Shown piece by piece: positions 30,030 through 48,239 of a stretch of DNA of 64,000 nt. The notes below the pieces were generated by a model. It made no database searches and was not told the DNA's origin. It worked only from the letters and a program-made list of their open reading frames with translations. Source of the DNA: Ruania alba (GTDB lineage Bacteria > Actinomycetota > Actinomycetes > Actinomycetales > Beutenbergiaceae); the NCBI RefSeq assembly GCF_900105765.1, contig NZ_FNTX01000002.1, positions 682,001 through 746,000 on the forward strand. Reading direction: 5' to 3'. Position 1 is the stretch's first letter; every line of letters begins with the position of its first letter. A program made the translations under genes and the position numbers.

Positions 30030-30063
30030 GGCGGGGACGGTAGCAGGCCGTCTGGCGCGGAAG

Positions 30064-31239
30064 TCAGCGCAATTCCCGGTGCGCGACGAGCAGGGTGATG
30101 TCGTCGAACAGTCCGTCGCTGGGATCGGCACCGAGATCGGCACGGATGCGTTCCACGGTGTCGCGGGCCAACCCCGATTCTGACGTCAACAGCTCAAGCA
30201 GACGCTCCTCTGAGTAGCGCTGGCCGTCCGCATCGACCGCGTCGGTGACCCCGTCGGTGTACACCACAAGGGTCTCGCCCGGGGCGATGGTCGCACGCTC
30301 CGCGCCGAACTCCAGCCCAGGCAGCAGCCCGACGGCGGGCCCGGTCGGGTTCAGGCGAGCGCGCGGACCGTGCGGGCCGCTGATCACCGGTGGCTCGTGA
30401 CCGCCGTTGACGTAGACCACATCGCCGGTCCCGGCATCAACGATCGCGAAGAACATGGTCGCGAACATGTGGTCCCGATGGTGGGTGCGAGCGATGTAGT
30501 CACTGACCGCGGTGATCAGCTCCCGTGCTTGTACGGCGGGCTCGCCGTGCTCGGTGACGATGCGCTCGGCCAAGGCACGGACGAGGCTACGGATCAGCGC
30601 CATGAACAGCGCCGCGCCTACCCCCTTGTCACAGACGTCGGCCACGACGAGGCCGACCCGTCGCCCACCGGGCAGCGCGAAGGCGTCGTAGAAGTCGCCG
30701 CTGACCTGACGCGCGGGCTGGAACCACGCGGCCATGTCCCAGCCGTCGATCATCGGCAGCGTCTCGGGTAGGAAGCCGGCCTGGATCGCGCGGGCGATGT
30801 CGAGCTCGCGCTCGAGGCTGCGTGCATGAATCTGCTCGCGGTCATGCAGGCGCTTGCGAGCCAGGCTGGCACCAACCCGCGCGCGCAGGATGTGCGGGTT
30901 GAACGGCTTCGGCAGATAGTCCTCCGCGCCGAGCTCCAGTCCCTTGGTGATGCTGTCGGTGTCATCGAGCGCGGAGATGAGAATCACGGGAATGTGGCGC
31001 AGTTCCTCGTCGGCCTGCATGTGCTCCAGCACCTGATAACCGTTGATGTCCGGCATCATGATGTCGAGCAGCACCAGGTCGAAGTCGTCGGCGCTGAGCA
31101 GGTCGAGGGCCTCGCGCCCATCGCCGGCCACGGCGGTGGCGTGGCCCTGACGGTGCAGGCGTCGGACCAGCAGGTCCCGGTTGGCCTCGGTGTCGTCGAC
31201 CACGAGGATCCGCGCCTGGGCATCGACCACAGTGCTCAT
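30064..31239 (-). CDS. Response-regulator PP2C phosphatase (receiver + SpoIIE domain)
   Basis: Signalling phosphatase of 391 residues, RsbU/RsbP-like. An N-terminal receiver (about 10-125) has ILVVDDTEANRDLL, phospho-acceptor Asp in LVLLDIMMPD and the Lys in YLPKPFNP. A helical linker (REQIHARSLERELDIARAIQ) leads to the SpoIIE phosphatase domain with ARQVSGDFYDAF, LVVADVCDKGVGAAL and a late FDDITLLVAHR. It would dephosphorylate a STAS antagonist, here most likely the one encoded at 33002-33340. Last gene of a seven-gene operon. Its ATG overlaps the patatin stop (ATGA). Confidence 0.93.
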   Translation of the reverse strand: MSTVVDAQARILVVDDTEANRDLLVRRLHRQGHATAVAGDGREALDLLSADDFDLVLLDIMMPDINGYQVLEHMQADEELRHIPVILISALDDTDSITKGLELGAEDYLPKPFNPHILRARVGASLARKRLHDREQIHARSLERELDIARAIQAGFLPETLPMIDGWDMAAWFQPARQVSGDFYDAFALPGGRRVGLVVADVCDKGVGAALFMALIRSLVRALAERIVTEHGEPAVQARELITAVSDYIARTHHRDHMFATMFFAIVDAGTGDVVYVNGGHEPPVISGPHGPRARLNPTGPAVGLLPGLEFGAERATIAPGETLVVYTDGVTDAVDADGQRYSEERLLELLTSESGLARDTVERIRADLGADPSDGLFDDITLLVAHRELR

Positions 31240-32120
31240 GGCGCCTCCTCGACCAGGTCAAGCCGGCGCAGGTACGGCAGCACCTCAAGAGTGGCGCGCT
31301 CGCCGTGCTCCATGATCGAGGGCAGGAGGTGGGTGTCGCCGACGCCGATCGGGGTGTCGAACTCAGGCATGATCGGCACAATCTCGGCGTGATGGACGGC
31401 ACTGTAGAACGCGTAGGTCGACTGCAGCAGGTGGTTCGTCGTGGTCGAGAGTGCTTGGCGGGCAACGCCGAGCAGCGAGTCCATCCGCTCCATCGCGGGT
31501 GTCTCGAACCCCATCGCCACGATGACGTCGGCACCCTCCCGGATCGCCAGGCTGATCGGCAACGGGTCCGACACACCGCCGTCGATGAGGAGGCGGTCGC
31601 CGACGGGCCACGGCCGGAGCAGCAGCGGCATCGCGATGCTCGCCCGCACCGCGTCGAACACCGCACCGGAAGTCAGGCCCACGCGTTCACCGGAGTGCAG
31701 GTCGGTAGCGGCGATGTGCAACGGGATGCGCGTGTCCGTGAACCGCGCCTCACCATAGAGCTCGCGCAATACCGTGGCGATGCCCCGATCGTCGACCAGG
31801 CCGATGCGTTCACTGAAGCCCAGCCTGCGCGGCAGCACACTGCGTAGCAACGAGCGGTAGTGCACCCGAGAGAACAGCCCGTGCCACATCCGGAAACTGT
31901 GTCGTTCGGCTTCCAGCGCATCCATACCCAGCGCCATCGCCGCGGCGTACAGGCTCCCGCCACTACACCCGACCACCAGATCAGGGCGGATGCCCTCACG
32001 TTGCAGCACCTTCCACATCCCGACGGCGGCCGCGCACTTCACGCCACCCGAACCGATCACGAGGGCGAGCCTCGGGCGGCCACGAGGCGGCGCCACGCCG
32101 TCGGGAACTTCTTCAGCCAT
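31236..32120 (-). CDS. Patatin-like phospholipase (second of tandem pair)
   Basis: Predicted serine acyl hydrolase of 294 residues. Nucleophile motif GCSGG (G-x-S-x-G) is near residue 50. The oxyanion-type glycine stretch is IGSGGVKCAAAVG, and the Asp of the dyad is in IDGGVSDPLP. No signal peptide or membrane helix. Start ATG 32120 overlaps the upstream patatin gene by 8 bp, and its stop overlaps the phosphatase start. About half the residues match the upstream copy (MWKVLQREGI versus LWKVLKREGI), so it is a tandem duplicate. Its place between STAS and PP2C genes suggests regulated membrane-lipid hydrolysis in a stress response (inference). Confidence 0.9.
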   Translation of the reverse strand: MAEEVPDGVAPPRGRPRLALVIGSGGVKCAAAVGMWKVLQREGIRPDLVVGCSGGSLYAAAMALGMDALEAERHSFRMWHGLFSRVHYRSLLRSVLPRRLGFSERIGLVDDRGIATVLRELYGEARFTDTRIPLHIAATDLHSGERVGLTSGAVFDAVRASIAMPLLLRPWPVGDRLLIDGGVSDPLPISLAIREGADVIVAMGFETPAMERMDSLLGVARQALSTTTNHLLQSTYAFYSAVHHAEIVPIMPEFDTPIGVGDTHLLPSIMEHGERATLEVLPYLRRLDLVEEAP

Positions 32121-33012
32121 CCACGGCCGCCAGCGCCTGCCGAAGGTAGCCCACCTGCGCATCGGCGGCGCGCTCGCCCTCCTCGATCACGTACGGGATC
32201 TCGTGGGTGTCGAACAACCGGATCGGTCGATCGAACTCCGGCAGCACCGGGATGATCTCGGCGTGATGGGCCAGGTTGTGAAAGGCGTAGTTGGCGCGAA
32301 ACAGGTTGTTCGTATAGATGCTGTTGACCTGGAACGCGTATCGGGTCGCCGACCGGACCCGGCTCGGGAACGGGCTCTCGAAACCCATCGCGAGGATCAC
32401 CTCCGCACCCTCCCGGATCGCCACATCCACCGGCAGTGGATCCGATGCGCAGCCGTCGAACAGCATGCGCCCGTCCACCTCCCAGGGCTTCCAGATGTAG
32501 GGGATGGCGATGCTCGCGCGCACGGCGTCGCGCACCCGTCCATCCGCGAGTGCCACCATCTGACCGTCTGCCGCGTCGGTGGCCACCACGCGCAACGGCA
32601 CGGCAGAGTCCTCCAGCCGCCTGTCGCCGAACAGTTCCTCGAGCGTGACCATGAGCTGGCGGTCGCTGACCATGCCGAACGAACCATCGAAGCCGAAGAC
32701 TCGCGGCAGCGCCGCCGAGAGCAGTGACCTGACATCACGACGCCTGGTGAGCGCCGGCGACCACAACTCCCGGGTCAAGCGTTCGCAGGTGTCCACGTCA
32801 TAGCCCAGCGCCATCACCGAGGCGTACAGACTCCCGCCGCTGCACCCGACCAGCAGGTCGATGTCGATTCCCTCGCGCTTCAGTACCTTCCACAGACCCA
32901 GGGCGGCCGCGCACTGCACGCTGCCCGAACCGATGACCAGGGCCACGCGCTTGCGCGGCACGGGCGCCGAGGCGGTCTCCACGCGGCCGGCTTCGGGGTC
33001 CTCAGCCGGCAT
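32113..33012 (-). CDS. Patatin-like phospholipase (first of tandem pair)
   Basis: Patatin-fold protein of 299 residues. Nucleophile motif GCSGG is in LLVGCSGGSLYASVMAL and the glycine-rich stretch is IGSGSVQCAAALG. The catalytic Asp motif reads FDGCASDPLP, DGC rather than the usual DG[GA]. The Asp is kept, so activity is plausible. It overlaps the STAS gene by 11 bp and the second patatin gene by 8 bp. The N-terminal 20 residues are unstructured. The pair may have diverged in lipid specificity. Confidence 0.9.
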   Translation of the reverse strand: MPAEDPEAGRVETASAPVPRKRVALVIGSGSVQCAAALGLWKVLKREGIDIDLLVGCSGGSLYASVMALGYDVDTCERLTRELWSPALTRRRDVRSLLSAALPRVFGFDGSFGMVSDRQLMVTLEELFGDRRLEDSAVPLRVVATDAADGQMVALADGRVRDAVRASIAIPYIWKPWEVDGRMLFDGCASDPLPVDVAIREGAEVILAMGFESPFPSRVRSATRYAFQVNSIYTNNLFRANYAFHNLAHHAEIIPVLPEFDRPIRLFDTHEIPYVIEEGERAADAQVGYLRQALAAVDG

Positions 33013-33340
33013 AGCTGCCTACAGCACTGGGCACGTCGTCGAAGCACTTCATGATGCTGGTGAAGCCGCTCAGCTCCAGCACCTTGCGCACCGGCGGATT
33101 GATGCTGGCCAGGCGCAGATCACCGCCATGCTGGCGGGTCTGCTTCACCGTGGCGAGCAGGGCTCGCAACCCGGCACTGCTGGTGTACTCCACCTGGGTC
33201 AGGTCCGCGACCAGTCGGGTGTGGCCGGCCTCGACGTAGCCCTGCAGAGTGCCGAGCAGTGTCTCGGCCGTCAGCCCGTCGACACTGCCTGAGATGACGA
33301 CGACCGCGGCATGCTCATCGGGGTGGATCTCGATCTCCAT
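33002..33340 (-). CDS. STAS-domain anti-sigma factor antagonist (RsbV-like)
   Basis: Protein of 112 residues with a single STAS domain. The phosphorylatable serine is in VEYTSSAGLRALL (the conserved [DS]-S-[AS]-G), and ADLTQV precedes it. Start ATG 33338-33340 has an AGGAGAGGAAG ribosome site. In partner switching its phosphorylation state is set by the RsbW-like kinase encoded 16 bp upstream and the PP2C phosphatase at the end of the operon. No sigma factor gene is present nearby, so the output partner is elsewhere or is not a sigma factor. Confidence 0.92.
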   Translation of the reverse strand: MEIEIHPDEHAAVVVISGSVDGLTAETLLGTLQGYVEAGHTRLVADLTQVEYTSSAGLRALLATVKQTRQHGGDLRLASINPPVRKVLELSGFTSIMKCFDDVPSAVGSYAG

Positions 33341-33356
33341 GGATCTTCCTCTCCTG

Positions 33357-33809
33357 TCACCTGTCGCCGCTGCCCGGCGGGCCGGCGGAAAGTCGCTTGA
33401 CCAGCGTGAACACGTTGCCGTTCTGGGCCCCGCGCTCGTGTGTGACCTGGTCCATGACGCGGTGCACCAGGTGCCAGCCCAGGCCACCGAGCGCGCGGTG
33501 CTCGCCGTCGGAGGCCAGATCGGGCGCATCGACGTCGCTCGGGTCGAACACCGGCGCGTCGTCGGTCAGGATGACGGTGATCTGCATCGGGGTGGCTTCG
33601 ATCTGCACCGTGACCGGTCCAGTCTGCTCGGTGTATCCGTGCTGGAGGATGTTGGTGAAGACCTCTTCAGTGGCCAGGCGTACGTCCGACGTCGTCTCCT
33701 CGCTTGCGCCCACGCTGGCACAGGAGCGTTGGACGAATGCCACCAGGCCGGGAAGCTCGGCCATGCACGTGACCACATACTCGGCACCGTCTCCCGCCGG
33801 GCGGATCAA
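33357..33809 (-). CDS. RsbW-like serine kinase / anti-sigma regulatory factor (HATPase_c)
   Basis: GHKL-fold protein of 150 residues. N-box EEVFTNILQHGY, G1 region LTDDAPVFDP and G2 region GGLGWHLVHRVMD are seen. Such proteins bind a sigma factor or other partner and phosphorylate the STAS antagonist. The start appears to be TTG 33809, overlapping the upstream receiver stop as TTGA. No better in-frame ATG or GTG precedes the conserved region, the next ATG being at residue 16. Confidence 0.88.
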   Translation of the reverse strand: MIRPAGDGAEYVVTCMAELPGLVAFVQRSCASVGASEETTSDVRLATEEVFTNILQHGYTEQTGPVTVQIEATPMQITVILTDDAPVFDPSDVDAPDLASDGEHRALGGLGWHLVHRVMDQVTHERGAQNGNVFTLVKRLSAGPPGSGDR

Positions 33810-34180
33810 GGCTGCACGCTATCGCGGGTGACCGCGGCGATCTTGCCGCACAGTCGATCCAGATCTACGGGTTTGGTGTCGAAGTCGTCGCAGCCCGCCG
33901 CCAGGGCACGGGCGCGATCGTCCGCCATCGCGTGCGCGGTCAGGGCAATCACCGGGATCGCCGCCGTCCGCTCATCAGCCTTGATCCTGCGCGCGGCCTC
34001 CCATCCGTCCAGCACCGGAAGACCCAAGTCCATCAGCACCACGTCCGGCTGTTCCCGCACGGTGGACTCCACAGCGGCGCGACCGTCGACCGCCGTCACC
34101 AGGACGTGTCCGCGGCGCACCAACCGGCGCGAGAGCATATCGAGATTCATCTCGTTGTCTTCGACCAGCAAGATCTTCAT
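33806..34180 (-). CDS. Single-domain response regulator (DivK/CheY-like)
   Basis: Receiver domain alone, 124 residues. Acidic pair in [13 protein letters not shown], phospho-acceptor Asp in [13 protein letters not shown], Thr in ALTAHAM and Lys in DTKPVD. No output domain, so it likely acts as a phosphate relay or by protein contact. Its ATG overlaps the hybrid kinase stop by 4 bp, so the kinase is the probable partner. Confidence 0.93.
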
Positions 34181-36303
34181 TCGAGCGCCTCGCCGGCCGC
34201 GTGGAGCTTCCCCCGAGGCCGACCCTCAGCGAGGGTGCGGCGCACCTCCTCCTCCAATTGGCCGCCAGTATAGCGACCCTTGGCAATGACCGACCCGGCC
34301 CGAGCGGAGAGCTCCTCTCGCTCGGCGTGCGTCAAGTCCCGGCTCGTGAGGATGATCACCGGCACTTCGTGGGCGTCCTGGCGGCCGCGCACCTCATCGA
34401 GGAACGCGAAGCCGTCCATGCGCGGCATGACCAGATCGAGCAGGATCAGCGCCGGCGCACAGTCGTCGAGGCGCGCCAACCCCTCGATACCGTCGGCGGC
34501 CTCCGCTACCCGCCAGCCCGCTCGTTCCAGTTGCCGCCGCAGCATCTCGCGCGTGGTGGCGTCGTCGTCGACCACGAGGATCGGCTCCTCGAGCGCCGAC
34601 GTTCCCAGATGCCTGCGGACGGTCTGGACGAGACTGTCGTTGTGGACCGGTTTCACCAGATAGTCGGCCGGACCAAGCGCGAGGCCCAGCGTCTGCTGAC
34701 CGGTCACGGAGATCATGACGACGGGGATCGGCGCCAGCTGCGGATCCGCCTTCAGGCTCGCCAGCACGTTCCACCCGTCGGTGCCGGGCATCCGCACATC
34801 GAGCAGGATCAGGCTGGGCTGCAGCTCGCGGGCGCGCTGCAGCCCATCATGGCCACTGGTCGCAGACTCCACCCGCAACCCCTGCCGCGCGAGAATCCGC
34901 TCGATCAGTGCGCTCCCTGCGGCGTCATCGTCGATCACCAGGACGACGGGTGCGTCGGCCGGCACGGACGTGGGCTCGTCGCCACCGGCCGGGACGGCAC
35001 CGGAGTCGACCGGGATCCGCACGGTGAAGGTCGTGCCGGTTCCAGGGATGCTGCTCAGGTCGATGTCGCCGCCCAGCAGCCGCGCACAGTGGCGTGAGAC
35101 CGCCAGGCCGAGGCCGGTCCCGCCGTACTCACGCGTGGTCGAGGAGTCGGCCTGAGCAAATGGCTGGAAGAGCCCCGCCTGCTGCTCCGAAGTCATGCCG
35201 ATTCCGGTGTCCGCGACCTCGAAGATCATCCACTCGCCCGACTCCATCGACTCTCGCCGAGCGCGGAGGTGGATCTCGCCGTCGTGAGTGAACTTCGCCG
35301 CATTCCCGAGCAGGTTGAACAGCATCTGCCGCACCTTGGTCACGTCGGTGTTCATCGTGCCCGGCGTCTCGGCCTCGAGGAACAGTCGGCTGTTCGACTT
35401 CTCTGCCAACGGCCCCACGGTGGCCACCACATCCTGGAGCACCGGCCCGACCTCCACCTGCTCCAGGTGGACCTCCATCTTCCCGGCCTCGATCTTGGAG
35501 AGATCGAGTACTTCGTTGATGAGACCGAGCAGGTGCCGACCGGCTGCGTGGATCTTTTCCAGGTCGGGCACGAGGTCGTCGTCGCCGGCCTCCCGCGCCT
35601 CCTCCTCCAGCAGCTCGCTGTAGCCGATGATGGCGTTCAGCGGCGTCCGCAGCTCATGGCTCATGTTCGCCAGGAACAGGCTCTTGGAGCGGTTGGCAGC
35701 ATCCGCGGCCTCCTTGGCCTGCGCCAGCTCCGCGCTCTTCTCCTCGATCTTGAGCTTCTGCTCCTCCAGGAGCTTGCGATTGTGCACGAACTTCTTGCTC
35801 TGCAGATAGGAGTGCAGCGCGAACACCGAACTGGTGAGGAAGATGCCGACGATGCTCGCCGCCGTCGCGAGCGGGGTCGATTCAAGCTCTTGCGCAAACC
35901 CGGTGACGAGACCACCACCGGCCACTCCCAGTGCGATGCCGATCCACCCACGCCCGGCGAGGCGGACGCCGCCGACACCGAGATTGCCGAGGTTGACGGC
36001 CGTGACGAACATGATGCTCGGCCAGAGGGTGAAGTGCATCCCCGCAATCCAGGCTCCGACCAGCACCGAGTCGATGAACATGTTGCGGTGCTCGGCGCGC
36101 TTGGAGTCTGAGCTGTGGCGCGCGTGCAGGAACGCCACCTGGGGCCACACCAAACCCCAGAGCACCAGGAGGGCGACCACGAGCGGGTCTGCCCGCCCTG
36201 AGGCATGGAACACCGAGAAGAAGACGGCGATCAACAGCGGAAAGCACGTCATCCGGACGATGTAGTCGAGTCGGACGATCGGGTGCAGCCGCGGTCGTCT
36301 CAT
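34177..36303 (-). CDS. Hybrid sensor histidine kinase with two C-terminal receivers
   Basis: Membrane sensor of 708 residues. Six hydrophobic segments (about 10-175) form the N-terminal sensor without a large external loop. A coiled coil ([20 protein letters not shown]) leads to the HisKA domain with [20 protein letters not shown] (His near 221). HATPase motifs follow: [26 protein letters not shown]. Then two receivers: [12 protein letters not shown] with [12 protein letters not shown], and [12 protein letters not shown] with [12 protein letters not shown]. The second receiver has ILTSRD and IAKGRYTG in place of a K-P, so its lysine context is unusual. First gene of the operon. Confidence 0.93.
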
Positions 36304-36530
36304 CGGCGCAGGTGGGGCCGGTGCCGAGACACAAGGGCGGACGTCGTGCCGTACACCGTGCTGCGTGCGCTACGCGCGCGGATGGCCCGTTCCTCCCCCG
36401 AGGCCCGGTCCCACCCGACGGCGCGCACGGGTCCACTCTGCCCCCAGGCACCTCAGGCCACAAGCCCCAGTCCTGACGGCGGCGGGTCAGGTTCGTACTC
36501 CGGCTTCCTGTCGATGCGAACGAGTGCTGG

Positions 36531-37883
36531 TCAGTGCGCCATGTCCACGAACCGTGCATAGTGGCCCTGGAACGCCACCACGATGGTGTCCGTGGGGCCG
36601 TTACGGTGCTTGGCCACGATCACGTCGGCCTCACCGGCCCGCGGGGACTCTTTCTCGTACATGTCCTCGCGGTGGAGCAGGATCACCATGTCGGCATCCT
36701 GCTCGATCGAGCCCGATTCACGAAGATCGCTCACCTGCGGCTTCTTGTCCGTGCGCTGCTCCGAGCCACGGTTCAGCTGCGAGATCGCGATCACCGGCAC
36801 CTCGAGCTCCTTCGCGAGCAACTTGATCGCACGAGAGAACTCGGAGACCTCCTGCTGACGGGACTCGACTCGCTTACCGGAGGACATCAACTGCAGGTAG
36901 TCGATCACGACGAGCTTGAGGTCGTGGCGCTGCTTGAGCCGGCGACACTTGGCCCGGATCTCCATCAGCGACATGTTCGGACTGTCGTCGATGAACAGCG
37001 GTGCTTCGGACACCTTGCCCATGGTGCGGGCCAGGCGAGTCCAGTCCTCGTCCCGCATCGTGCCCTTGCGCATGTTCTGTAGCGGCACCTGAGACTCCGC
37101 GGAGAGCATGCGCATGGAGATCTCGTTGCGGCTCATCTCCAGAGAGAAGATCACCGACGTCAGACCGTTCTTGATCGACGTGGCGCGCGCGATGTCGAGT
37201 CCCAGGGTGCTTTTCCCCATCGCCGGCCTGGCCGCGATTACGATCATCTGCCCCGGGTGCAGACCGTTGGTCAGCGCATCCAGGTCGGCGAACCCGGTGG
37301 GCACCCCGACCATGCCGTCATCGCGGTGGGAGGCGGCGTCGATCTCCTCCATCGTGGAGTTGATGACATCCTTCAGCGGCACATAGTCCTCGGACGTGCG
37401 CCGCTCGGTGACCGCGTAGATCTCGGACTGCGCCGTGTTCACCAGGTCGTCCACGTCACCGCCATCGGTGGCGTAGCCGAGCTGCACGATGCGGGTGCCG
37501 GCATCGACCAGGCGCCGCAGCACCGCCCGCTCGCGCACGATCCGTGCGTAGTAGCCGGCGTTGGCCGCGGTCGGCACCGAGGAGAGGAGCGTGTGCAGGT
37601 ACGGCGCCCCACCGATCCGGCTCAGCTCGCCGCGCTTGGTCATCTCCGCGGCCACGGTCACCGCGTCGGCCGGCTCACCGCGCCCGTAGAGGTCGAGGAT
37701 GGAGTCGTAGATCGCCTCGTGCGCGGGCCGGTAGAAGTCCGTCCCCCGCAGGACCTCCACCACGTCGGCGATGGCGTCCTTGGAGAGCAGCATGCCGCCG
37801 ATCACGGACTGCTCGGCGGCCACGTCCTGCGGTGGGGTGCGCTCGAAGGTCTCCGGCGCGTCGGTCATCTCGGAGACGCTCAC
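36531..37883 (-). CDS. dnaB: Replicative DNA helicase DnaB
   Basis: Hexameric replication fork helicase, 450 residues, no intein. N-terminal domain begins PPQDVAAEQSVIGGMLLSKDA. RecA-like domain has Walker A ARPAMGKSTLGLD, Walker B LKLVVIDYLQLM, and the arginine finger region near QDADMVILLHRED. Start is GTG 37883, as similarity begins shortly after. In many actinobacteria it follows rpsF-ssb-rpsR-rplI, which are found here 2.4 kb away, separated by a lipoprotein and a MATE gene. Confidence 0.97.
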   Translation of the reverse strand: MSVSEMTDAPETFERTPPQDVAAEQSVIGGMLLSKDAIADVVEVLRGTDFYRPAHEAIYDSILDLYGRGEPADAVTVAAEMTKRGELSRIGGAPYLHTLLSSVPTAANAGYYARIVRERAVLRRLVDAGTRIVQLGYATDGGDVDDLVNTAQSEIYAVTERRTSEDYVPLKDVINSTMEEIDAASHRDDGMVGVPTGFADLDALTNGLHPGQMIVIAARPAMGKSTLGLDIARATSIKNGLTSVIFSLEMSRNEISMRMLSAESQVPLQNMRKGTMRDEDWTRLARTMGKVSEAPLFIDDSPNMSLMEIRAKCRRLKQRHDLKLVVIDYLQLMSSGKRVESRQQEVSEFSRAIKLLAKELEVPVIAISQLNRGSEQRTDKKPQVSDLRESGSIEQDADMVILLHREDMYEKESPRAGEADVIVAKHRNGPTDTIVVAFQGHYARFVDMAH

Positions 37884-47658: not shown

Positions 47659-48239
47659 TCGAGCGTGTCACGCTCCTGATCGGGGTCGGCCCGGGCGGGC
47701 TCCGGGTCGACCGCTCGTCGTGACTGACGCGGCCAGAACGCCCAGGTGACGAGCCCTGCCGCAACCAGCGTCAGGCACCCGAGCACCACCGGGTCCTGGA
47801 ACCACACGATCACGGACGCCAGGTGCGGCACCGAGCCCAGCACCAGCCGGACCTGCGAGACCGTGTACGGGGCCGGGTCCGGGTCGGCATTGGCATCACC
47901 CTGCATGGTGAAGGTGACCTGCTCGCCGTCGGTGCCGAGCACCTCGGTGACCCGGTGCGTCACCGGCAGCGCCGCTGGACGATCCACGGTGACGACGTCT
48001 CCCACCTCGATCTCGGTGGCGGGGACCTCGCGTACCAGGGCGACCGACCCGGCCGGGATGGTCGGCGTCATCGAGCCGGTGGAGAACATGATCAGCGAGA
48101 TGTTCAGGGTGAACGCCAGCACCACGAGCACGATGCACAGGGCGCCCGCGGCGGCGAGGACGGTGAGCGCCACATCGCCGACGCGAGCCAGCGCACCGAC
48201 GCCGGCGGTCCGTCGGGCCCGCTCAGCCACGATCCGCAC
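47649..48239 (-). CDS. Signal peptidase I, ER/SipW type
   Basis: 196 residues with two membrane segments, near residues 28-50 and 152-170. Catalytic Ser in MFSTGSMTPTIPAG, and VTHRVTEV supplies a His where bacterial enzymes have Lys, so this is the Ser-His (archaeal/eukaryal, SipW) type. This class processes TasA/camelysin-like precursors, four candidates for which precede it in the operon. It is last in the operon and directly abuts the preceding gene. Confidence 0.9.
   Translation of the reverse strand: MRIVAERARRTAGVGALARVGDVALTVLAAAGALCIVLVVLAFTLNISLIMFSTGSMTPTIPAGSVALVREVPATEIEVGDVVTVDRPAALPVTHRVTEVLGTDGEQVTFTMQGDANADPDPAPYTVSQVRLVLGSVPHLASVIVWFQDPVVLGCLTLVAAGLVTWAFWPRQSRRAVDPEPARADPDQERDTLDHT

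What the first reader, a model, noticed from the sequence alone, without database searches (positions are those of the whole stretch)
30064..36303. Partner-switching operon with two built-in patatin-like phospholipases
Seven genes overlap or nearly abut: hybrid kinase, receiver, RsbW-like kinase, STAS, patatin, patatin, receiver-PP2C. No sigma factor is present. Two serine acyl hydrolases between antagonist and phosphatase suggest that the switch controls lipid hydrolysis, or that lipid products feed the sensor. I know of no described system with this layout.
Basis: partly seen in the sequence, partly recalled or inferred. Interest (0 to 1): 0.75.

Follow-up and report, generated by a model that had tools for sequence, protein, structure and literature searches.

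The report
Phosphorylation switch that controls lipases
A set of seven bacterial genes joins a phosphorylation switch, of the kind that usually controls gene expression, to two fat-splitting enzymes; the same combination recurs in distantly related bacteria and seems to move as a unit, so the switch probably controls breakdown of membrane lipids directly.

Summary
Confirmed: window 36303-30064 (minus strand) is one operon: MASE2 hybrid kinase, receiver, RsbW-like kinase, STAS, patatin A, patatin B, receiver-SpoIIE phosphatase. It is not a one-off. The patatins belong to a monophyletic subfamily with switch genes beside it: STAS in 32 of 36 loci, RsbW-like kinase 30, phosphatase 28, at least one 34, in four named phyla besides the window's. 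None of 49 other patatins has such neighbours within 1.5 kb, against 12 of 12 family loci (limited profile sensitivity; Pfam cross-check). A same-genus genome shows the empty site: about 6.48 kb entered between dnaB and an acetyltransferase gene. Patatins and STAS group with Luteimonas, implying transfer between phyla. Best reading: a sigma-less partner switch whose output is the patatin pair, working like SiaABCD. STAS is about as conserved as patatin A and more than the kinase, so I favour direct STAS-patatin contact; no binding or activity was tested. Eight paper searches showed no such system. New variant of a known kind.

The parts
34177..36303 (-). Hybrid histidine kinase: MASE2 sensor, HisKA, HATPase_c, two receiver domains (P0001)
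   Evidence: Pfam; counterpart 78% identical in G003, 72% in Luteimonas L025
33806..34180 (-). Stand-alone receiver protein (P0002); start overlaps the kinase stop
   Evidence: Pfam
33357..33809 (-). RsbW-like serine kinase, HATPase_c_2, TTG start overlapping the receiver stop (P0003)
   Evidence: Pfam (1.2e-23); below NCBIfam RsbW cut-offs; [DE]E...N box in 30 of 30 rows
33002..33340 (-). Single-domain STAS antagonist with SSAGLR site (P0004)
   Evidence: Pfam (6e-20); TIGR00377 above cut-off; SSAGLR in 32 of 32 rows
32113..33012 (-). Patatin A (P0005), overlaps the end of STAS; Ser58 and Asp186, D-G-C dyad motif
   Evidence: Pfam (7.2e-28); AlphaFold2 pLDDT 86.3, closest solved fold PlpD
31236..32120 (-). 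Patatin B (P0006), start inside the end of patatin A; D-G-G dyad motif
   Evidence: Pfam (1.6e-29); phmmer match to PlpD 5fqu
30064..31239 (-). Receiver-SpoIIE (PP2C) phosphatase (P0007), start overlaps the patatin B stop
   Evidence: Pfam (SpoIIE 2e-44); full-length match to a Pseudomonas response regulator, 3eq2 (3EQ2 is named as P. aeruginosa RssB)
36304..36523 (-). Non-coding stretch carried in with the operon; presumed promoter region (inference)
   Evidence: Inside the insertion boundaries; the consensus scan found no sigma-70-type site there
30047..36523 (.). Extent of the inserted unit relative to the empty site in G002
   Evidence: Collinearity with L187 ends at 30046 and resumes at 36524

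Best explanation
The operon is a self-contained, horizontally moving partner-switching module whose output is enzyme activity, not transcription. The membrane hybrid kinase senses an unknown signal and passes phosphate to the receiver protein and to the receiver of the phosphatase (inferred). The phosphatase strips phosphate from the STAS protein; the RsbW-like kinase puts it back (inferred from domain identity). In one phosphorylation state STAS is free to act on the patatin pair, most likely by direct contact that promotes an active dimer or heterodimer, and the patatins then hydrolyse membrane lipid (inferred). Shown: gene content, order, conservation, coherent transfer, intact catalytic motifs. 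Not shown: any phosphorylation, binding, lipase activity or the signal. I put about 0.75 on 'patatins are the output of the switch', about 0.45 on 'STAS itself is the contact' and about 0.2 on 'the RsbW-like kinase holds the patatin'.
For: No sigma factor in the operon and none among the 25 of 113 Pfam families shown for 103 flanking ORFs of 30 of the 36 loci. In 36 loci: STAS 32, kinase 30, phosphatase 28, all three 25, tandem patatins 23, STAS directly upstream on the same strand 26. Eight loci fetched after the first survey (six new genomes, two second copies in known genomes) all have STAS directly upstream; 7 of 8 have the kinase and 7 of 8 the phosphatase. 49 other patatins: 0 with such neighbours; family loci at equal flank 12 of 12. 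Set kept through rearrangement: divergent in L046 and L048, phosphatase inverted in L039. Empty site. Catalytic Ser in 44 of 45 and Asp in 45 of 45 family patatins; the exception, L050-A, lies in a locus without STAS or kinase. Median identity over 239 distant pairs of 24 loci: patatin A 52.4%, STAS 50.9%, phosphatase 45.1%, kinase 34.7%; STAS exceeds kinase in 236 of 239. Precedents: SiaC activating the cyclase SiaD by direct binding (PMC8457831, abstract) and HsbA-HsbD (PMC6482189, passages). After PlpD the closest solved folds include the nucleotide-bound phospholipases CapE and CapV.
Against: No interaction, phosphorylation or lipase assay exists. The 239 pairs are not independent; in a locus such as L040 the only kinase in reach belongs to another cassette, which lowers the kinase figure. 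The within-locus control is small: patatin-linked STAS 72-75% against 60-63% for a neighbouring STAS and 62-63% for its kinase in the three pairs with L040, but no consistent gap among L036-L038. In the STAS tree the patatin-linked rows are not resolved as a clade apart from six generic STAS. In L036-L038 the kinase, not STAS, is the switch gene nearest upstream of the patatin. L035 and L050 have the patatin without any of the three switch genes at the threshold used. Operon membership alone could reflect a shared stimulus. A sigma-factor target elsewhere in the genome was not ruled out.
Confidence: 0.6

Rival explanations
1. Kinase-held lipase: the RsbW-like kinase binds and silences the patatins as it would a sigma factor, and dephosphorylated STAS releases them.
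For: This is the classical partner-switch logic (recalled). In L036-L038 the kinase is the switch gene nearest upstream of the patatin. The kinase is present in 30 of 36 loci.
Against: The kinase is the least conserved of the four components compared (median 34.7% against 50.9% STAS and 52.4% patatin A). L034 and L083 have STAS and patatin but no kinase within 4 kb.
Confidence: 0.2
2. The switch acts on an unlinked sigma factor or other regulator; the patatins are only co-expressed enzymes of the same response.
For: RsbV/RsbW-type proteins usually act on sigma factors (recalled). No interaction data exist. In P. aeruginosa a receiver-phosphatase and STAS pair, RssB-RssC, serves sigma-S degradation (PMC12143880, passages).
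Against: No sigma factor among the flanking families shown (capped list); the unit has moved with patatins but without a sigma factor; 2 of 36 family loci lack all three switch genes.
Confidence: 0.15
3. Stress- or phage-triggered self-digestion: the module is a defence or dormancy device in which the patatins damage the cell's own membrane.
For: Patchy, transferable distribution; weak PADLOC match of patatin B to phospholipase effectors, E 2.1e-7; CapE and CapV among the closest folds; nSTAND1 in 3 and SIR2-like in 2 of 103 flanking ORFs.
Against: No cyclase in the operon by Pfam or PADLOC; it sits next to dnaB in one genome and gatB in the other, though wider flanks were not scanned with PADLOC; a membrane-sensor phosphorelay is unusual for abortive infection (judgement).
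Confidence: 0.12
4. Feedback loop: patatin products (lysolipid, fatty acid) are what the membrane sensor reads, so the patatins are part of the input.
For: MASE2 is a membrane sensor domain (recalled); 7 of 103 flanking ORFs, the operon's own kinases included, match it.
Against: Chloroflexota loci keep patatins with other sensors, PAS-phosphatase in L029 and CHASE2-phosphatase in L041.
Confidence: 0.08

Closest known systems
SiaABCD of Pseudomonas aeruginosa
   Same: PP2C phosphatase, kinase, a protein resembling anti-sigma factor antagonists (section heading and abstract) and an effector enzyme that it activates by direct binding (PMC7647112 and PMC8457831, abstracts and section lists). Which phosphostate of SiaC binds is recalled.
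   Different: Effector there is a diguanylate cyclase, here two patatins; SiaC is phosphorylated on a threonine (abstract); input here is a separate hybrid kinase and receiver-phosphatase.
HsbR-HsbA-HsbD of Pseudomonas aeruginosa
   Same: PP2C phosphatase and kinase domains and an antagonist that binds a diguanylate cyclase (PMC6482189, passages).
   Different: Phosphatase and kinase are one protein there; also tied to FlgM/FliA and RpoS; no lipase.
E. coli rssA-rssB and Pseudomonas rssB-rssC
   Same: rssA is a patatin gene next to rssB, whose product is a receiver plus truncated phosphatase domain (PMC12143880, passages). Pseudomonas RssB matches P0007 end to end and lies in an operon with the rsbV homologue rssC.
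   Different: RssA falls outside the patatin family here. No STAS or RsbW-like gene is annotated at the E. coli locus. RssB is an RpoS adaptor. Scores are far under the NCBIfam cut-offs.
CBASS phospholipases CapV and CapE
   Same: Patatin-fold lipases that answer to a signal; among the next-best fold matches.
   Different: Bind cyclic nucleotide (entry titles) made by a cyclase (recalled); here no cyclase, and gating would be by protein contact.
RsbU-RsbV-RsbW partner switches
   Same: Phosphatase, STAS antagonist and serine kinase.
   Different: Target is a sigma factor (recalled); none here.

Membership tests
Partner-switching module (RsbUVW type) | GHKL serine kinase (HATPase_c_2) | tested here: met
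   P0003 PF13581 1.2e-23; below RsbW equivalog cut-off, 41.5 of 145 bits
Partner-switching module (RsbUVW type) | Single-domain STAS with phosphorylatable Ser | tested here: met
   P0004 PF01740 6e-20, TIGR00377 over cut-off, SSAGLR in 32 of 32 rows; phosphorylation itself not tested
Partner-switching module (RsbUVW type) | SpoIIE/PP2C phosphatase | tested here: met
   P0007 SpoIIE 2e-44
Partner-switching module (RsbUVW type) | Sigma factor as linked target | tested here: not met
   None among the seven genes nor among the 25 of 113 families shown for 103 flanking ORFs of 30 loci
Partner-switching module (RsbUVW type) | Exchange of binding partners with phosphorylation | not testable with these tools
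   Needs protein biochemistry
Patatin-like phospholipase (PF01734) | Patatin fold, GxSxG Ser and DGx Asp dyad | tested here: met
   Pfam; Ser 44 of 45, Asp 45 of 45; fold match PlpD
Patatin-like phospholipase (PF01734) | Glycine-rich oxyanion loop ending in basic residue plus Gly (recalled; a common motif, not required by Pfam) | tested here: not met
   Family loop is G-x-G-x-x-x-C: Cys34 in 45 of 45 where PlpD has Gly
SiaABCD | Diguanylate cyclase effector | tested here: not met
   No GGDEF match in the seven proteins
RssA/RssB | Patatin of the RssA equivalog next to RssB equivalog | tested here: not met
   RssA model 67.8 and 88.1 bits against 272; Pseudomonas RssB model 118.5 against 700; tree separates RssA
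CBASS phospholipase | Linked CD-NTase cyclase (recalled) | tested here: not met
   None among the seven proteins by Pfam or PADLOC; wider flanks not scanned with PADLOC

The most novel reading that the evidence does not exclude
A transferable 'lipid switch': STAS itself is the activating subunit of a patatin A-patatin B heterodimer, in which A serves mainly as the regulatory half and B as the catalytic half, so that a membrane sensor converts a stress signal into rapid membrane-lipid hydrolysis without transcription. Phospholipases would thus join diguanylate cyclases as a second class of enzyme output of partner switches, spread over at least five phyla.
Probability: 0.25. Interest if true: 0.8.

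Novelty: new variant of a known kind. Interest (0 to 1): 0.64.

Why it matters
Partner switches are best known as sigma-factor controls (recalled); the enzyme outputs in the papers seen here are diguanylate cyclases. A phospholipase output, conserved and mobile across phyla, would give bacteria a fast signal-to-membrane route with no gene expression step and would give a concrete, testable role to a patatin subfamily of unknown function. It also bears on why a patatin gene (rssA) sits beside rssB in E. coli, although the tree does not make RssA a member.

Tried and rejected
RssA kinship: considered because rssA-rssB has the same patatin-to-receiver-phosphatase order; rejected as membership by tree and score cut-offs. 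Plasmid or phage carriage: patatin A matched 105 plasmid records, all under 60% identity, the 20 listed at 26.5-34.0%; 4 phage records at 26-29%; viral contigs none; STAS on 14 plasmid records at 24-38%, viral contigs none. Defence system: only weak PADLOC matches. Insertion mechanism: between two short edge stretches one shared 9-mer and no inverted one; no integrase among the genes; not solved. GC does not mark the insert (65-69% inside, 66-72% around). Structure of the extra Chloroflexota protein: model too poor (pLDDT 58.8), not searched. Promoter scan uninformative. Complex prediction was not possible (single chains only), and direct-coupling analysis was not tried (about 30 rows).

Dropped or limited rows: L084 is the same contig as L050 and was left out of the 36; L045 (near-identical to L044) is in the 36 but left out of the identity comparison, the STAS tree and the flank scan. 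The flank scan covers 30 of the 36 loci because of the residue limit, and its 103 ORFs include the operons' own kinases. The control scan took up to three ORFs for each of the 49 loci. Alignment A2 held one row (L034) in a wrong frame; replaced by A3. Prevalence searches scored only the best few candidates per genome (for example 6 of 23), so they are lower bounds.
Full report
OBSERVATION. The ORF map, DNA and Pfam scan confirm seven minus-strand genes from 36303 to 30064: MASE2-HisKA-HATPase-REC-REC kinase, receiver, HATPase_c_2 (RsbW-like), STAS, patatin A, patatin B, REC-SpoIIE. Five of six junctions overlap and the sixth is a 16-base gap with a ribosome-binding-like stretch, so it reads as one transcription unit. 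No sigma factor is among them. The Pfam patatin profile finds three matches in the genome, two of them here. The organism is very probably an actinobacterium: the 12 listed best DnaB matches (of 1339 plasmid-collection records) and the four best of 55 for ribosomal protein L9 are all of actinobacterial genera (genus-to-phylum recalled).

CONSERVATION. Of 59 genomes searched with patatin A, the own one included, 14 matched at E 0.001, but only the window's genome and one same-genus genome (G003) above 73 bits. G003 carries the same seven genes in the same order, 67-88% identical gene by gene, beside gatB instead of dnaB. One scan of a collection of 84,980 species' genomes with an alignment of four patatins gave 26 loci: Luteimonas, a Burkholderiales, Gemmatimonadota, Chloroflexota, Thermoanaerobaculia, an unclassified bacterium and one Syntrophaceae bin; all but the three Luteimonas are metagenome-assembled, with the usual binning risk. 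Mapping the seven window proteins on them showed the full seven-gene order in the three Luteimonas loci and the kinase-STAS-patatin(-patatin)-phosphatase core in many others. Larger samples with the 45-sequence profile A3 found the family in 1 of 396 genomes of the window's phylum (the window's own), 7 of 346 in the phylum of the Gemmatimonadota locus L043, 3 of 400 in the phylum of the Chloroflexota locus L030 and 4 of 247 in the family of Luteimonas L025. Nine of these 15 were already known and six are new; the figures are lower bounds because only the best few candidates per genome were scored. The family is rare and patchy.

COUNTS AND CONTROLS. With profiles built from the first loci I counted neighbours within 4 kb in 36 loci (window, G003, the 26, and eight fetched later): STAS 32, kinase 30, phosphatase 28, all three 25, at least one 34, tandem patatins 23, STAS directly upstream on the same strand 26. 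STAS misses: L033 and L049 are cut off on the upstream side; L035 and L050 have room and lack all three (L035 shows only a 24-bit kinase fragment, under the threshold). L034 is cut off downstream. Of the eight later loci (six new genomes, two second copies in known genomes) all eight have STAS directly upstream, seven the kinase and seven the phosphatase. Among 61 distinct patatin loci with about 1.5 kb flanks, 12 of 12 of the family and 0 of 49 others had any of the three domains. That control is weakened by the limited reach of my profiles: at a looser threshold they saw a STAS in 15 of 30 Pfam-found STAS loci, two of those being the family's own. I therefore scanned 132 neighbouring ORFs of the 49 other patatins with Pfam: STAS, HATPase_c_2 and SpoIIE are absent from the families matched by two or more ORFs, so each occurs at most once among the 132.

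PHYLOGENY AND TRANSFER. In a tree of 73 patatins the 59 family rows form one group (100/100) apart from 13 control patatins and E. coli RssA. A-type rows form a supported group (98/89), B-type rows fall into two; I read this as an old duplication. The window's A and B each group with Luteimonas A and B, and the STAS tree repeats this (97/86 and 100/99); but in that tree the patatin-linked STAS are not resolved as a clade apart from six generic STAS. Same-genus G002 has dnaB followed directly by the acetyltransferase gene that lies beyond the operon in the window. Similarity breaks at 30046 and resumes at 36524: the insert is about 6.48 kb, replaces about 95 bases, and holds the seven genes plus about 220 bases upstream. 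So the unit travels whole and presumably brings its own promoter. The direction of transfer is not settled.

PATATIN ANATOMY. The nucleophile Ser is present in 44 of 45 and the dyad Asp in 45 of 45 rows. The exception, L050-A, lies in a locus without STAS or kinase, in a genome with a second copy that has both and a phosphatase. The family has Cys in place of the Gly after the basic residue of the oxyanion loop in 45 of 45 (PlpD comparison). A-type and single proteins carry C, S, A, F or Y after DG, B-type G or A. The patatin A model (pLDDT 86.3) matches PlpD best, then CapE, another lipase entry and CapV.

MECHANISM. Sensors vary: 7 of 103 flanking ORFs match MASE2, L029 has PAS-SpoIIE and L041 CHASE2-SpoIIE; STAS and patatin stay. 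A part that stays while inputs vary is more likely output. In 239 pairs of 24 loci with patatin A under 60% identity, medians are patatin A 52.4, STAS 50.9, phosphatase 45.1, kinase 34.7%; STAS exceeds kinase in 236 of 239. The pairs are not independent, and in L040 the nearest kinase belongs to another cassette. In Chloroflexota loci that also hold a second STAS-kinase cassette, the patatin-linked STAS is 72-75% identical in the three pairs with L040 against 60-63% and 62-63% for the cassette's STAS and kinase, but among L036-L038 there is no consistent gap. This points, modestly, to extra contacts of STAS, most simply with the patatin. Against it, the kinase is the nearest switch gene upstream of the patatin in L036-L038. 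SiaABCD shows that a protein resembling anti-sigma antagonists can activate an enzyme by binding it and shifting its oligomer (abstracts). The proposed chain is: membrane kinase, receiver and REC-phosphatase, STAS dephosphorylation, patatin activation, lipid hydrolysis. Every arrow is inferred.

LITERATURE. No paper in the held library contains patatin with STAS domain and partner-switching, with SpoIIE and STAS, with anti-sigma factor antagonist, or patatin-like with partner switching. Patatin with response regulator, operon and PP2C gave one broad review (listing only). rssA/rssB/patatin gave one E. coli evolution paper (listing only) and rssA/rssB/rpoS/operon/phospholipase one Serratia review (listing only). 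STAS domain/PP2C/phospholipase and related terms gave eight papers (listing), of which PMC7159879 has no occurrence of patatin (passages). The STAS-only review PMC8256260 has no occurrence of patatin or phospholipase in its main text. Subscription papers are mostly not held.

VERDICT. A real, conserved, mobile, sigma-less switch operon with lipase output as the best reading: a new variant of partner switching, worth bench work.

Noticed in passing
L030:4136-5023, also L029, L031, L036, L037, L038, L042, L080, L081: A conserved protein of about 295 aa lies directly upstream of an RsbW-like kinase in nine Chloroflexota patatin loci. No Pfam match in the 4 members scanned, no NCBIfam match better than E 0.2 in 9, no PDB match better than E 1.4. 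AlphaFold2 model is poor. Not found in the window's genome. It may be a kinase partner.
   Followed up: partly
window 36531-37883; L189, L190, L191 and G004, G007: The window's dnaB is uninterrupted (450 aa), but in five of eight same-genus genomes the DnaB match is split into two or three pieces within one long open frame, near residues 210-230 and/or 390-400, as inteins would do.
   Followed up: no
L036, L037, L038, L040: Four Chloroflexota loci carry a second STAS-kinase-STAS cassette upstream of the patatin switch, with an opposite-strand phosphatase in three of them; none was found in L037.
   Followed up: partly
L041:834-3215: An MFS-type membrane protein with a cyclic-nucleotide-binding domain sits between STAS and patatin, and the phosphatase has a CHASE2 sensor.
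   Followed up: no
flanks of 30 family loci: nSTAND1 (3 of 103) and SIR2-like domains (2 of 103) occur among flanking ORFs; the link of these families to defence is recalled.
   Followed up: no
window 47872-47958 (+): ARAGORN reports one tRNA of undetermined identity with an odd anticodon call; Rfam finds nothing in the window at gathering cut-offs, so it may be spurious.
   Followed up: no
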